Shown here: in pieces, positions 4,690 through 18,634 of the stretch | Position numbering within the stretch: the stretch's first letter is position 1 | How the letters are laid out: each line of letters starts with the position of its first letter | DNA from: Thiotrichaceae bacterium | Lineage (GTDB): Bacteria; Pseudomonadota; Gammaproteobacteria; Eutrophobiales; Eutrophobiaceae | Direction of reading: 5' to 3' | DNA length: 62,358 bases | NCBI GenBank assembly: GCA_012960105.1 | Contig: DUBV01000089.1 | Location: 1-62,358 of the forward strand | Notes under the pieces: generated by a model | The model's database searches: none | Told to the model about the DNA's origin: nothing | The model's input: the letters and a program-made list of their open reading frames with translations, nothing else | Position numbers and translations under genes: made by a program

Positions 4690-4802
4690 AGTGCTTATAT
4701 TCCTTAACTTCTTTACTTGGATTTTAAAAAGGCGAGTATTTTAGTGAGAATGGGTGAAATTGCAACGCAAATAACAAGAATATCAGGAAAACATTGAGAT
4801 AA

Positions 4803-5816
4803 ATGCAGGTATTAGGAATAGAAAGTTCGTGTGACGAGACCGGAATAGCCATATATGACTCTGAAGAAGGCTTACTAGCCCATAATCTCCACAGTCAGAT
4901 TGATTTACATAAAGAATACGGTGGTGTTGTGCCAGAACTCGCTTCTCGTGATCATGTTCGACGATTATTGCCGTTAATTAAAAAAACACTGAATGAAGCA
5001 CAGTCTGATCTCAAATCACTGGATGCGATTGCCTATACAGCGGGTCCCGGTCTAATGGGCGCATTGTTAGTGGGTACGGCAATGGGTCGAAGTCTGGCTT
5101 ATTCATTATCGATACCGGCAATTGGTGTGCATCATATGGAAGCGCATTTATTAGCGCCGATGCTGGAAGAGGATGTTCCTGAGTATCCTTTTTTGGCCTT
5201 ATTGGTCTCCGGCGGGCATACGCAAATCGTCCATGTTACCAAACCTGGCGATTACAAAATTCTTGGCGAATCAGTGGATGATGCTGCCGGCGAAGCCTTT
5301 GATAAAACAGCAAAATTATTGGGTTTATCCTATCCCGGTGGTCCAGCATTGTCTGCATTAGCGGAGAAGGGAGATAGTAAGCGCTTTCTTTTTCCTCGGC
5401 CGATGACTAATCGTCCCGGTCTTGATTTCAGTTTTAGTGGATTAAAAACCTTTGCTTTAAATACTGTGAATTCGGAATCGGACGATGAACAAACGCGAGC
5501 TGATATTGCACGTGCCTTTGTCGATGCCGTGGTCGATACCTTTATTATCAAATGTCGTAGAGCTATCAAGGAAACAGAGTTGAAGGAATTAGTCGTCGCT
5601 GGTGGTGTTAGTGCAAATAAGCAATTGCGAGAAGGTTTGAATGGCTTGATGGGTGAGGTTAATGGAAAAGTCTATTTCCCAAGAGCTGAATTTTGTACCG
5701 ATAATGGTGCGATGATCGCTTACGCGGGTTATTTGAGGTTGAAAGCAGGAGAGACACAATCATTAAACTTTCAGGCAAAACCACGATGGCCGTTGGATGA
5801 GTTAGCGCCGAGCTAA
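4803..5816 (+). CDS. tsaD: tRNA N6-threonylcarbamoyladenosine (t6A) transferase TsaD
   Basis: Catalytic subunit that transfers threonylcarbamoyl to A37 of ANN-decoding tRNAs, acting with TsaB and TsaE. The 337-residue ASKHA-fold protein shows [15 protein letters not shown] at the N-terminus, the metal-binding HMEAH (His111, His115), LVSGGHTQ, and a late [10 protein letters not shown]. It is divergent from rpsU, the classical arrangement, and convergent with plsY. Confidence 0.97.
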
Positions 5817-14045: not shown

Positions 14046-16136
14046 TTAATTAATATGTCGATTATCCGATATTTTAATTGCGGTGCAACTTAGATTAGCA
14101 ATCTTCTGGTTTTTTTTAGAAGTGACCAATGGCATACGATCTTTTATAGGTTTGATTTTTCCGCCTAAACGCCAGTCGTATATATTGGCAAAATAGAGTA
14201 CGCGACGAACATATTTTCGAGTTTCATTAAAAGGAATTTGTTCGATCCATACATCAGGTTCTACACAACCTTGTTTAGGTAGCCATTTGTTAACGCGATG
14301 TGGTCCGGCATTATAAGAGGCCGTCGCTAAAACTATATTGCCTTTAAATTTATCCAGCATTTGCTTCATGTAAGCGGTGCCTATAGGGATATTGGTTTTC
14401 GCTTGCGTGAGTTTATATGTTTTAAAACTTTTTAGGCCGATACGTTTTGCTGTTGCCGCACCTGTTTTAGGCATGACTTGCATTAAGCCTAATGCTCCTG
14501 CAGGTGATTTCACATCTTCAATAAAAGCACTTTCTGCGCGAGCCAGACCATATATCCAACTGCGATCGATCTTTCGTTTTTTCGCATATTTGTCGAAGAG
14601 TTCGTCAAAAAGAATAGGGAAGCGTAAAACTAAATTATCATAGGCTTTGGCCTTGTTCATGGTAAAGATAGCTCTGTCATGCCAACCCCATTGCGAAACT
14701 AATGCAGCGGCCATTTGCATCTGGTAGGTCGTCATTTTACTCAAGGCGTGATACCACTCGCGTCTTGCCGGATAGCCCGTATTAAGTTTATAAAATTCAT
14801 AAGCGCGTTTGATTGCGGGTAATGATTCTATGCGTGCAAATTCTTCTTTGTTTTCCGGTAAGGGATAATGATTCATGTGGTAAGAAACATTAACTTTATC
14901 AGCGGCAAGAAAACCGTAGTAATCACGTTCTTTAGCTAGCTCAGTGAATATTTCATTCGCTTTTTCTATTTCACCTGTTTCTTCCAGAGCACGCGCATGC
15001 CAATAACGCCAGCGCAATTCGATCTCAATGACAGGCGCGTCACCTGTTGTCCATTTTTTTAATAAAGGCCAGTCTTCATTGGCTAATGCTGTACGCAAGC
15101 GGTAATGAAATACCTGATCATCAACATGATAATTATCGATTTGATCAAGTAACTTTGCCGCTAGCTTGCTCTTATTCTTTGAAGCCCGAATAGCAAGTGT
15201 GCGTTCTATTTCCGCAATTTCGCCAGAGGTAAATGCATAATTATCTTTTAATGCATCGAGCCGTTTAACTGCTTTAGCCACATCCTGCCTAGCCAGACGT
15301 AAAATACCATGTACTAAAATTTCTCTGGTAATGACGCTATCTTCAAGTTTTGGCTTATTCGTGTGCTTATAAGGATTGTGATGAATTGCGATCCATTTCT
15401 TCGCAAGCTTTTTGTGTTCATCATCAAGACGTCGGGATAAATAACTTACCAGACTCAGTTGATTATTCTGCATGGATAAACGTACGCGTTCCCAGACCAA
15501 TTCATTGGTCATCAGGTCACTTTTGTATAAACGTTCAAATGCTGTATCACATTGTGACGGCAAGGACTTTCCTGTGAGCCAGATGCTGCGAGTGTCCTCC
15601 AGAAAAAACACGTCGTTGTTGGTTTTCATTCTGGCTTGTAATTGATAACACTGCATTTTGACATTGGATTGCGGCAGGTAATTATCAAGAAAGGTTTGCC
15701 AGTGACCGCGCTTGATTAAAAGCTTTAACCAGGATGTGCGTAAATAATTCGCTACGGGTAAATCGCTGTAGCGTTTGAGGAAATCTATAATTTCCGCATC
15801 ATCAATTTTCCATAGGCGTTTCAGAATGTAGTTGTAACGCAAGTAAGGGTAGAGCGGATAGTCCTTCAGTGTATTGGCAATTTTGCCGAAGGTTTTATAT
15901 TGCTTGGTTTCCAATGCTTTTTTAGCAGCAAGATAATCTTTGCGTTGCAATTCTATCGATTTCGCAAAAACAGGTGCAGTAGCCGCCAAGGAAATAATAA
16001 ATATTAAAAGCAGTAGCAAAGCCTGCTGTCGCTTGTTTGCTATATGGAAAAATGCGCTGGATATTCTAGAATCGGCCACTGTGTATTTATCAATATGAAG
16101 TTGTGGGATTGTCCTTATTTGGCTGTCATTTCGCAA
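14046..16136 (-). CDS. slt: Soluble lytic murein transglycosylase Slt
   Basis: Periplasmic enzyme cleaving peptidoglycan glycan strands with formation of 1,6-anhydro ends. The 696-residue protein has a hydrophobic export segment (LLLLLIFIISLAATAPVFA, residues about 39-58), a long helical superhelix domain, and a C-terminal SLT domain with the catalytic Glu in RAESAFIEDVKSPAGALGLMQ. The start is a TTG with GGAG nine bases upstream; this leaves an unusually long, about 37-residue, N-terminal stretch before the signal core, so an internal start (for example GTG at residue 20) is possible. Confidence 0.92.
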   Translation of the reverse strand: MRNDSQIRTIPQLHIDKYTVADSRISSAFFHIANKRQQALLLLLIFIISLAATAPVFAKSIELQRKDYLAAKKALETKQYKTFGKIANTLKDYPLYPYLRYNYILKRLWKIDDAEIIDFLKRYSDLPVANYLRTSWLKLLIKRGHWQTFLDNYLPQSNVKMQCYQLQARMKTNNDVFFLEDTRSIWLTGKSLPSQCDTAFERLYKSDLMTNELVWERVRLSMQNNQLSLVSYLSRRLDDEHKKLAKKWIAIHHNPYKHTNKPKLEDSVITREILVHGILRLARQDVAKAVKRLDALKDNYAFTSGEIAEIERTLAIRASKNKSKLAAKLLDQIDNYHVDDQVFHYRLRTALANEDWPLLKKWTTGDAPVIEIELRWRYWHARALEETGEIEKANEIFTELAKERDYYGFLAADKVNVSYHMNHYPLPENKEEFARIESLPAIKRAYEFYKLNTGYPARREWYHALSKMTTYQMQMAAALVSQWGWHDRAIFTMNKAKAYDNLVLRFPILFDELFDKYAKKRKIDRSWIYGLARAESAFIEDVKSPAGALGLMQVMPKTGAATAKRIGLKSFKTYKLTQAKTNIPIGTAYMKQMLDKFKGNIVLATASYNAGPHRVNKWLPKQGCVEPDVWIEQIPFNETRKYVRRVLYFANIYDWRLGGKIKPIKDRMPLVTSKKNQKIANLSCTAIKISDNRHIN

Positions 16137-16222: not shown

Positions 16223-17032
16223 ATGTTTGCTGAATTAACACTACAAATCATCATTATTTATGCCGTCATCGGTGTTTTTGCCGGATTAATCGGCGGTATG
16301 CTGGGATTGGGCGGTGGTATTATTATTGTCCCCATCTTGCATTACTTATTTATCCAACAAGGATTTCCGCCTGCTATCATCATGCATCTAGCGGTGACGA
16401 CCTCATTAGCCACCATTATTGTAACCTCTGTTTCAGCGACTTATGCACATCATCAAAAAGCGGCGGTGTTATGGCCGGTGGTAAAGCGGATTGCGCCGGG
16501 GATATTGGTTGGCGCGAGTCTCGGTGCCGTATTGGCAGATTCACTTTCTAGTAATACTTTACGCATCGTATTTGGTGTTTTTGAGATCTTAGTCGCGATA
16601 CAAATAGGTCTGGAACTTAAACCTAAGGCGAAAACACAATTACCGGAAACGACAGGACTGATTGGTTCCGGAGTAGGCATAGGTTTGTTTTCAACATTAT
16701 TAGGTATAGGTGGTGGAACGCTGACCGTGCCATTTTTGTTGTGGTGTAATGTCAATATACGTAATGCTGTGGCGGTATCTTCTGCATGTGGTTTTCCAAT
16801 TGCGGTTACTGGCACGACAGCATTAATTATGACAGGTTGGAATAATACCTCTGTTCCGATAAATTCATTGAGTTATCTATACTGGCCAGCAGCATTGAGC
16901 ATTATTGCGATGACCGTTTTCTTTGCACCTATGGGTGCTCGTCTGGCACATTATCTTCCTGTCGCAACATTAAAACGAATATTTGCCGTGCTACTAATGA
17001 TTGTTGGGTTACGCATGTTGATTCAATATTAA
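16223..17032 (+). CDS. TauE/SafE-family membrane permease
   Basis: A 269-residue membrane protein of the sulfite exporter TauE/SafE family (DUF81). It has the duplicated family motif: GLIGGMLGLGGGIIIVPIL in the N-terminal half and LLGIGGGTLTVPFL in the C-terminal half, with about eight transmembrane segments. Members export sulfite, sulfoacetate or related anions; the substrate here is unknown. It ends 2 bp before the CULT-domain gene in the same direction. Confidence 0.9.
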   Translation: MFAELTLQIIIIYAVIGVFAGLIGGMLGLGGGIIIVPILHYLFIQQGFPPAIIMHLAVTTSLATIIVTSVSATYAHHQKAAVLWPVVKRIAPGILVGASLGAVLADSLSSNTLRIVFGVFEILVAIQIGLELKPKAKTQLPETTGLIGSGVGIGLFSTLLGIGGGTLTVPFLLWCNVNIRNAVAVSSACGFPIAVTGTTALIMTGWNNTSVPINSLSYLYWPAALSIIAMTVFFAPMGARLAHYLPVATLKRIFAVLLMIVGLRMLIQY

Positions 17033-17034
17033 TC

Positions 17035-17439
17035 ATGCAATTAGTCAATAAAAGGTATCGATTAAAAAAAAACGAGTTCGATACAGAAACATCCTTGCAA
17101 AATGAAAATGTGTTAGAAGCAGCAGCCGAAGAAAATAAAAAATTATTTTGTAAGAATTGTAAAAATCACATTACCAATATTGATGCAGCTATTTCAATTG
17201 ATGGCGCGCATACACATACATTCAAAAATCCAGCAGACTACGAGTACACAATTAGCTGTTATCAAACTGCCGTGGGATGTTTAGTATCGGGAGAGCCAAC
17301 TAATGAATACACTTGGTTTAAACATTATCAATGGCAGTTAGCTTTTTGCAATGCTTGTGGCGATCAACTTGGTTGGTTGTTTAGTAATGAACAGCAGTTT
17401 TATGCGCTAATAGTCGATCGGCTAATTGATCAATATTAA
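17035..17439 (+). CDS. CULT-domain protein (bacterial cereblon-like)
   Basis: A 134-residue protein whose C-terminal 100 residues match the CULT fold, the thalidomide-binding domain of eukaryotic cereblon that also occurs as small stand-alone bacterial proteins. Evidence: a zinc site of Cys39/Cys42 (CKNC) and Cys105/Cys108 (CNAC); the three tryptophans of the aromatic cage, Trp94 (TWFKHY), Trp100 (YQW) and Trp114 (LGWLF); and the linking HTFKNPADYEYTISCYQTAVG. Cereblon binds C-terminal cyclic imides on proteins; the bacterial role is not known. It follows the TauE-like permease by 2 bp and is probably cotranscribed. Confidence 0.85.
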   Translation: MQLVNKRYRLKKNEFDTETSLQNENVLEAAAEENKKLFCKNCKNHITNIDAAISIDGAHTHTFKNPADYEYTISCYQTAVGCLVSGEPTNEYTWFKHYQWQLAFCNACGDQLGWLFSNEQQFYALIVDRLIDQY

Positions 17440-17443
17440 AAGT

Positions 17444-17875
17444 TTAATTTAATTCTGGCTTGTATAAGTAACCCAGAAAAAAAGAAACGCCAATAAAAAT
17501 CAAGGCAAACTTTAAATCACCAGCAATAATATAAAGTACAAAGCCAAACATGCCGGGCGAGTTACAAAGCGACATGCCAATAAGGAGAAATATAAAGTAG
17601 CGCTTTAATTTTTCAGGTGTGTTTTCTATACCTGTTTGAATATTTTCTCTGATTATAAGTTGTTCGCGTTTAAAGAAACTGTGAATAGTAAAAGGTGCCG
17701 TTGCGCTAATGATGCAAATTACAATAAAGATATTTTTCAAGTCCGGCATGATCGGTTCAAGTTGTACAAAATGGTTCAAGACATAAATGATCGGAATAAG
17801 CATTAATGTACTGGCCTGCATAGCATGCCAGAGTATTTTTATAGTAGTGTCGTCAAAAGGTTTTGCTTCGTTCAT
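17444..17875 (-). CDS. Small membrane protein of unknown function
   Basis: A 143-residue protein with four predicted hydrophobic segments (around residues 18-34, 47-66, 91-111 and 117-137) separated by a charged central loop. No motif that I recognise. It is convergent with the CULT-domain gene and divergent from yjbQ. Confidence 0.7.
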   Translation of the reverse strand: MNEAKPFDDTTIKILWHAMQASTLMLIPIIYVLNHFVQLEPIMPDLKNIFIVICIISATAPFTIHSFFKREQLIIRENIQTGIENTPEKLKRYFIFLLIGMSLCNSPGMFGFVLYIIAGDLKFALIFIGVSFFLGYLYKPELN

Positions 17876-18349: not shown

Positions 18350-18634
18350 ATACCTAAAGCAATCTGGAATAATGCAGTGCTAGCAGAAAGTGAAACTTAT
18401 GAAACAGTAGAAGGTAATATCTACTTTCCTATCGATTCAATTAATTTACAATACTTTAAAGAAACTGAAACGCACACGACTTGCGGTTGGAAAGGTTTAG
18501 CTAGCTATTACACGGTTGTTGTTGATGGCAAAGAAAATGTAGATGCAGCCTGGTATTACCTTAAACCGGAATCAAAAGCGGAGAATATAAAAAATCATGT
18601 GGCATTTTGGAATGATGTTGAAGTAATAAAGTAA
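18350..18634 (+). CDS. DUF427 protein with apparent ATA start codon
   Basis: DUF427 proteins usually begin with a (P)KAIWNG-like strand. Here that strand is present (PKAIWNNAVLAESE) but it is preceded by ATA at 18350, not by ATG, GTG or TTG. AAGGAG at 18337-18342 lies exactly 7 bases before the ATA, the ideal spacing. The first ordinary start, GTG at 18377, would delete the conserved first strand and has no ribosome site. From ATA the product is 94 residues and contains TETHTTCGWKG and VDAAWYY, both typical. A real AUA start, a recent ATG to ATA mutation, or a sequence error all fit. Confidence 0.75.
   Translation: MPKAIWNNAVLAESETYETVEGNIYFPIDSINLQYFKETETHTTCGWKGLASYYTVVVDGKENVDAAWYYLKPESKAENIKNHVAFWNDVEVIK

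What the first reader, a model, noticed from the sequence alone, without database searches (positions are those of the whole stretch)
17035..17439. Stand-alone bacterial CULT (cereblon-type) protein linked to a TauE-family permease
The sequence shows the CULT zinc pairs (Cys39/42, Cys105/108) and all three cage tryptophans (94, 100, 114). Cereblon uses this pocket to bind C-terminal cyclic imides on proteins and thalidomide-type drugs. The physiological ligand in bacteria is not known. Here the gene starts 2 bp after a TauE/SafE-like permease, which gives a possible functional partner. The N-terminal 35 residues form a polar extension.
Basis: partly seen in the sequence, partly recalled or inferred. 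Interest (0 to 1): 0.7.

Follow-up and report, generated by a model that had tools for sequence, protein, structure and literature searches.

The report
Bacterial cereblon-like imide-binding protein
[quoted passage not shown] it is a good new member of a known family, but the transport gene beside it looks like an inherited neighbour rather than a proven partner.

Summary
Window 17035-17439 (+) encodes a 134-aa stand-alone CULT protein with C39/C42, C105/C108 and cage W94/W100/W114. phmmer finds Magnetospirillum MsCI4 (E 6e-20) and human cereblon (E 1e-9). The AlphaFold core superposes on MsCI4-thalidomide at 1.0 A over 102 residues, Z 19.6. TauE (PF01925) ends 2 bp upstream.

TauE as partner is only weakly supported. 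Adjacency recurs in 21 of 75 non-redundant loci and in 5 of 19 gammaproteobacterial families with CULT. But among 34 family genomes the genes do not co-occur significantly (19/4/7/4, p=0.39), and in all 7 genomes with TauE and no CULT match, TauE still sits beside the same lytic transglycosylase. Of 48 loci without that transglycosylase, one has TauE.

The "polar extension" is a variable linker preceded by a conserved N-terminal motif, roughly [YL]-x-[FL]-[DKR], unplaced in both models.

Verdict: new member of a known kind. Ligand and role remain open; my preferred reading is a cytosolic reader of cyclic imides.

The parts
17035..17439 (+). CULT (cereblon-type) protein, 134 aa, stop codon included
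   Evidence: ORF; phmmer; model and fold match; one match in the genome
17044..17067 (+). conserved N-terminal motif, residues 4-11 (V4, Y8, L10, K11)
   Evidence: V4 and Y8 invariant in the 8 closest sequences, residues 8-18 identity 0.51 against 0.27 in the linker; motif score 398.7 against 257.2 +/- 6.5 in 25 shuffles
17089..17136 (+). variable, low-confidence linker, residues 19-34
   Evidence: mean pair identity 0.27; pLDDT under 50 for residues 16-28 and 16-31
17149..17160 (+). first zinc CxxC pair, C39 and C42
   Evidence: 93 of 94 CULT cores
17314..17316 (+). cage Trp94 (MsCI4 W79, human W380)
   Evidence: 93 of 94 cores; residue equivalence MsCI4/human from PMC8900816 (passages)
17332..17334 (+). 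cage Trp100 (MsCI4 W85, human W386)
   Evidence: 94 of 94 cores
17347..17358 (+). second zinc CxxC pair, C105 and C108
   Evidence: 94 of 94 cores
17374..17376 (+). cage Trp114 (MsCI4 W99, human W400)
   Evidence: 94 of 94 cores
17380..17382 (+). Phe116 at the cage base (Tyr101 in MsCI4; human number F402 recalled); human-like state
   Evidence: F in 62 and Y in 32 of 94 cores; the Phe->Tyr difference between human and MsCI4 is in PMC8900816 (passages)
16223..17032 (+). TauE/SafE-family permease, inherited neighbour, possibly co-transcribed (inference from spacing)
   Evidence: PF01925 E 8.5e-54; adjacency; separability
14046..16136 (-). soluble lytic transglycosylase that anchors the conserved locus
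   Evidence: PF01464 and PF14718; found in 27 of 75 non-redundant CULT loci

Best explanation
[quoted passage not shown] Inferred from the solved homologue: a structural zinc pins two beta sheets, and the cage W94/W100/W114 over F116 holds a five- or six-membered ring with an imide edge, whose NH and distal carbonyl bond the backbone of Y92 and W94. Inferred with less support: the cellular ligand is a cyclic imide, most likely the aspartimide or glutarimide that forms at the C-terminus of damaged proteins. The protein would then act as a reader of damaged ends, with its mobile N-terminal arm, which carries a conserved Y-x-F-[DK]-like motif, either closing over the bound end or docking a partner. 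Shown here by sequence and prediction: fold, cage, zinc ligands, motif and linker, phylogenetic spread, and that TauE is separable. Not shown: any ligand, any partner, cytosolic location (no signal sequence seen by inspection).
For: Homology to MsCI4 and human cereblon. Fold match Z 19.6 at 1.0 A over 102 residues. Cage and zinc residues near-invariant in 94 cores. N-terminal motif conserved above the linker and low-confidence in both models. CULT matches lie in records titled Gammaproteobacteria, Rhodospirillales, Desulfovibrionales and other former Deltaproteobacteria, Acidobacteria, Spirochaetes and Planctomycetota (nearly all MAGs). PMC8900816 (passages) gives the glutarimide contacts in MsCI4. 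PMC13001092 (passages) says C-terminal aspartimides bind cereblon. PMC4449219 (passages) says a third of the MsCI4 domain folds only on ligand binding and that a short N-terminal extension of the human protein folds along the site.
Against: No ligand test of this protein. It carries two rare changes near the cage: D68 for G in the NPxG tip (5 of 94) and H97 for G between two cage Trp (1 of 94). PCMT, an enzyme family linked to imide formation, matches in 51 of 53 genomes and in all 14 controls, so it says nothing specific. CULT has no match in 23 of 53 family genomes (several are incomplete) and in 340 of 369 class genomes, so a universal damage-repair role is unlikely. MsCI4 also binds uracil and uridine (PMC4287342, passages), so a free metabolite remains possible.
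Confidence: 0.5

Rival explanations
1. It is a sensor or carrier of a small free metabolite such as uridine, uracil-like ureides or hydantoins, not of protein ends.
For: MsCI4 binds uracil and uridine (PMC4287342, passages) and PDB holds its deoxyuridine complex 4v31. YfbR-like 5'-deoxynucleotidase genes lie near CULT in 4 loci that group with marine Gammaproteobacteria.
Against: No nucleotide-metabolism gene was seen among the neighbours scanned at this locus. The YfbR neighbours are on the opposite strand and come from one close group.
Confidence: 0.25
2. CULT and TauE are one functional unit: TauE moves a small anion or imide-like compound and CULT binds it in the cytosol.
For: 2 bp gap, same strand. 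Adjacent in 21 of 75 loci, each time same strand and directly upstream (20 by clustering, L048 by the tblastn result for its duplicate L027; a profile search also gives 21, window counted). TauE upstream in 7 of 29 class genomes with CULT, from 5 of 19 families. In most of the 11 TauE regions fetched from other families (L103, L104, L138-L146) TauE is not beside the transglycosylase (only L145 is), so the three-gene order is not a general feature of the class.
Against: Presence is not significantly correlated: 19 both, 4 CULT only, 7 TauE only, 4 neither, Fisher p 0.39; p 0.21 if G032, whose contig ends 180 bp after TauE, is left out. TauE stays beside the transglycosylase in all 7 TauE-only genomes. 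TauE adjoins the transglycosylase (L145) or its usual neighbour c5 (L146) without CULT in other families. One of 48 loci without the transglycosylase has TauE.
Confidence: 0.12
3. The gene is decaying: cage-loop changes (H97, D68) and repeated loss in the family mean relaxed selection and little function.
For: No CULT match in 23 of 53 family genomes. H97 unique and D68 rare. The f97 copy (G148) lacks the second CxxC pair in the open frame shown (L149).
Against: Full-length frame with all zinc and cage residues. 60% identity to its same-genus homologue L002, which has an intact cage. N-terminal motif kept while the linker drifts.
Confidence: 0.08

Closest known systems
MsCI4 (MGR_0879), Magnetospirillum gryphiswaldense CULT protein
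   Same: single domain, two CxxC pairs, three cage Trp, fold within 1.0 A over 102 residues
   Different: 34-36% identical in the aligned region; F116 instead of Tyr101; D68 and H97 near the cage; a motif-bearing N-terminal arm, which did not score above shuffles in seven short-tailed Rhodospirillales-type copies (L067, L070, L078, L082, L084, L089, L090). MsCI4's own N-terminus was not scored
Human cereblon thalidomide-binding domain
   Same: fold (Z up to 17.8), zinc ligands, cage, Phe at the cage base (PMC8900816 passages)
   Different: no LON domain and no known ubiquitin-ligase partner; 134 aa in all; about 28% identical in the aligned region
Yippee/Mis18 family (PF03226)
   Same: related zinc beta-tent fold (PMC4287342, passages)
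   Different: scores 24.1 bits, under the curated cut-off of 26.6; CULT relatives score far better

Membership tests
CULT domain (stand-alone bacterial group) | two CxxC zinc pairs | tested here: met
   C39/C42/C105/C108 aligned with the family; zinc itself not tested
CULT domain (stand-alone bacterial group) | three invariant cage tryptophans | tested here: met
   W94, W100, W114
CULT domain (stand-alone bacterial group) | beta-tent fold superposable on MsCI4 and cereblon | tested here: met
   Z 19.6, rmsd 1.0 A over 102 residues to 5amh; Foldseek E 7.2e-11; predicted model, not a solved structure
CULT domain (stand-alone bacterial group) | conserved NPxG hairpin tip (highly conserved, not stated as defining) | tested here: inconclusive
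   N65 and P66 present, the Gly is D68; 5 of 94 CULT cores, this one included, have the Asp
CULT domain (stand-alone bacterial group) | protein consists of the CULT domain only | tested here: met
   134 aa, no other Pfam family over its cut-off
CULT domain (stand-alone bacterial group) | binds glutarimide, cyclic imides or uridine | not testable with these tools
   needs a binding assay
Cereblon proper (E3 substrate receptor) | LON domain N-terminal to CULT | tested here: not met
   only about 35 residues precede the domain; no LON match listed at E up to 1
Yippee-Mis18 (PF03226) | curated Pfam cut-off of 26.6 bits | tested here: not met
   24.1 bits, E 4.2e-5
TauE/SafE (upstream gene) | PF01925 over its cut-off across the protein | tested here: met
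   183.2 bits against 32.6, residues 14-265 of 269

The most novel reading that the evidence does not exclude
Stand-alone bacterial CULT proteins of this lineage are two-part damage adaptors. The Trp cage reads C-terminal cyclic imides on damaged proteins, and the conserved N-terminal Y-x-F-[DK]-like arm, tethered by a variable linker, hands the cargo to a bacterial protease or repair enzyme or folds over the bound end. This would be a bacterial counterpart of cereblon's degron reading without ubiquitin, laid out like the known tail-docking protease adaptors ClpS and SspB (recalled).
Probability: 0.12. Interest if true: 0.85.

Novelty: new member of a known kind. Interest (0 to 1): 0.4.

Why it matters
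None of the passages I read names an established natural ligand of bacterial CULT proteins, although MsCI4 is used as a soaking system for cereblon drugs (PMC8900816, passages). This lineage adds two things: a test of the obvious neighbour (TauE is separable from CULT), and a conserved N-terminal motif that can be used as bait for a partner. If the motif leads to a protease or repair enzyme, cereblon's cyclic-imide reading would have a bacterial, ubiquitin-free parallel.

Tried and rejected
TauE as obligate partner: rejected as unproven. PCMT as a specific correlate: match in 51 of 53 genomes and all 14 controls, so uninformative. Mobile-element origin: no confirmed relative in viral contigs by short back-translated patterns, which find close relatives only, nor in plasmids or phages by tblastn at E 1e-5. 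Neighbour survey outside the family: 91 of 171 candidate neighbours from 46 loci were scanned against Pfam (80 were not); the commonest of 126 families were YfbR-like/HD (4 members), GatB (3) and Rdx (3), each taxon-limited. N-terminal motif docking on the own domain: residues 1-30 stayed low-confidence in both models. Motif outside the lineage: over 28 of 46 other N-termini (those with an ATG start and at least 15 residues) the summed score is above all 200 shuffles, but only 5 of 28 reach p 0.05 singly; in 18 class N-termini the sum is about 2.5 sd above the shuffle mean but under the best of 500 shuffles, 4 of 18 at p 0.05. So I claim the motif only for this lineage. The linker alone also beat its shuffles (235.7 against a maximum of 217.0), which shows that relatedness inflates these scores. 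The CULT tree (94 rows, 105 columns) is poorly resolved: TauE adjacency needs 5 changes, and one origin is not ruled out. Direct Trp-pocket geometry was not measured, as I had no model coordinates. In the neighbour and motif lists, L022 (f12, TauE but no transglycosylase) and L052 (f1, transglycosylase not found on the contig) were put with the family set by hand; one search gives the TauE count without that choice.

Full report
What is there. The ORF at 17035..17439 (+) encodes 134 aa and starts 2 bp after a 269-aa ORF at 16223..17032. That upstream protein is TauE/SafE family (PF01925, E 8.5e-54). The 134-aa protein matches MsCI4 of Magnetospirillum (4v32, E 6.1e-20) and human cereblon (9dom, E 1.3e-9) by phmmer; Pfam sees only a sub-cut-off Yippee-Mis18 match, 24.1 bits against 26.6. 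It has one match in its own genome, 2.54 Mb and 98.5% complete.

Fold and pocket. With a 38-row alignment AlphaFold gives a confident core, block means 95-98 for residues 41-130, and low confidence (block means 47-60) for residues 1-30. VIA-align places the model on MsCI4 with thalidomide (5amh) at Z 19.6, 1.0 A over 102 residues, and on human cereblon at Z up to 17.8. In 94 distinct bacterial CULT cores, W94, W100 and W114 occur in 93, 94 and 94; the four Cys in 93, 93, 94 and 94; the cage base (116) is Phe in 62 and Tyr in 32. PMC8900816 (passages) gives the MsCI4-human cage equivalences, the backbone contacts to glutarimide, and the note that the extra bond from Tyr at the base raises affinity without altering binding modes. 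Two changes are unusual here: D68 in the NPxG tip (5 of 94) and H97 between two cage Trp (1 of 94). I could not measure the pocket in model coordinates; cage formation is inferred from the superposition and alignment.

The N-terminus. Among the 8 closest sequences (7 of the genus plus L033 of a neighbouring genus), V4 and Y8 are invariant; residues 8-18 have mean pair identity 0.51, the linker 19-34 0.27, and the domain 0.64. A seven-residue motif search over 28 N-termini, 27 from the family (f1) and one (L022) from family f12, gives 398.7 against 257.2 +/- 6.5 in 25 shuffles, maximum 273.9; the linker alone gives 235.7 against a shuffle maximum of 217.0, so shared descent accounts for part of the excess. 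Outside the lineage the motif is patchy: 5 of 28 and 4 of 18 N-termini reach p 0.05 singly. A second model, from a 26-row alignment rich in motif-bearing relatives, still leaves residues 1-30 at low confidence. A mobile arm with a conserved tip is what the sequence shows; its job is inference.

The neighbourhood. The order transglycosylase (divergent), TauE, CULT, then UPF0047 and DUF427 recurs across the family. In 75 non-redundant CULT loci, TauE is directly upstream on the same strand in 20 by ORF clustering, plus L048 by the tblastn result for its duplicate L027, so 21; a six-frame search with a TauE profile finds the same number, 20 of 74 plus the window. Of the 48 loci without the transglycosylase cluster, one, L022 of family f12, has TauE. 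In a class sample, 29 of 369 genomes have a CULT match, and TauE lies upstream in 7 of the 29, from 5 of 19 families. In one of those 7 (G148, L149) a 74-aa ORF lies between and the CULT frame is incomplete.

Is TauE a partner? Thirty of 53 family genomes have a CULT match (counted). Of the 34 family genomes scored for both genes (TauE at E 1e-40): 19 have both, 4 CULT only, 7 TauE only, 4 neither; Fisher p 0.39, with no correction for relatedness. One TauE-only genome, G032, has its contig end 180 bp after TauE, so its CULT could be missing from the assembly; without it p is 0.21. The odds ratios are 2.7 and 3.2, so a modest tendency is not excluded. In all 7 TauE-only genomes TauE is still next to the transglycosylase. 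Of 11 TauE regions fetched from other families, L145 has TauE beside the transglycosylase and L146 beside its usual neighbour c5 (its genome keeps CULT elsewhere); L141 and L104 hold a piece of the same neighbourhood; in the rest TauE lies elsewhere or was not called. So the locus looks inherited, with the genes lost one by one; co-transcription is plausible from the spacing, functional coupling is not shown. The CULT tree is too poorly resolved (49 of 91 inner branches open) to count origins.

What it probably does. From literature passages: MsCI4 and cereblon bind glutarimides through this cage; MsCI4 also binds uracil and uridine (PMC4287342); C-terminal aspartimides on proteins bind cereblon (PMC13001092); a third of MsCI4 folds only with ligand, and an N-terminal extension of human cereblon folds along the site (PMC4449219). 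I commit to a cytosolic cyclic-imide reader with a mobile arm. The protein has no evident signal sequence by inspection. The patchy distribution argues against an essential repair role.

Novelty. Stand-alone bacterial CULT proteins were described in 2015, with delta-, alpha- and gammaproteobacterial members and one spirochaete (PMC4287342, passages). A search of the held library for 'CULT domain' with 'TauE' found no paper, and the words 'operon' and 'permease' do not occur in the main text of PMC4287342; most subscription papers are not held, so this is not proof of absence from print. The new points are the lineage, its separable TauE neighbour and the N-terminal motif. This is a new member of a known kind; interest 0.4.

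Noticed in passing
window 18377-18634: A DUF427 gene (PF04248) lies 0.9 kb downstream of CULT and recurs in 13 of 75 CULT loci; PMC4287342 (passages) lists DUF427 among beta-tent-fold domains, so two beta-tent genes share this locus.
   Followed up: partly
window 17444-17875 (-): A 143-aa ORF with no Pfam family over its cut-off faces CULT tail to tail and is conserved at 47-54% identity in five relatives (L002, L003, L004, L006, L007) and in L093, where CULT is missing.
   Followed up: partly
L060 around 4774-5722: A Desulfovibrio contig (UBA12339) carries two adjacent CULT ORFs on one strand.
   Followed up: no
L076: A contig filed as Fluviicola (Bacteroidota) holds a CULT gene and neighbours that group with marine Gammaproteobacteria: probably a binning error.
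   Followed up: no
L067, L069, L073, L074, L084: In five Rhodospirillales-type loci one ORF cluster lies upstream of CULT; GatB matches three scanned neighbours, most likely its members. A second cluster there looks like GatA (my recall, not scanned). In L073, L078 and L085 one cluster follows CULT directly, most likely the three Rdx matches. Meaning unknown.
   Followed up: partly
L149 (G148:C34): A CULT-like gene near TauE in another family whose open frame lacks the second CxxC pair; possibly decaying.
   Followed up: no
window 14046-16136 (-): The transglycosylase also scores on Pfam Cucumovirus coat protein (27 bits, cut-off 22.6), almost surely a chance match.
   Followed up: no
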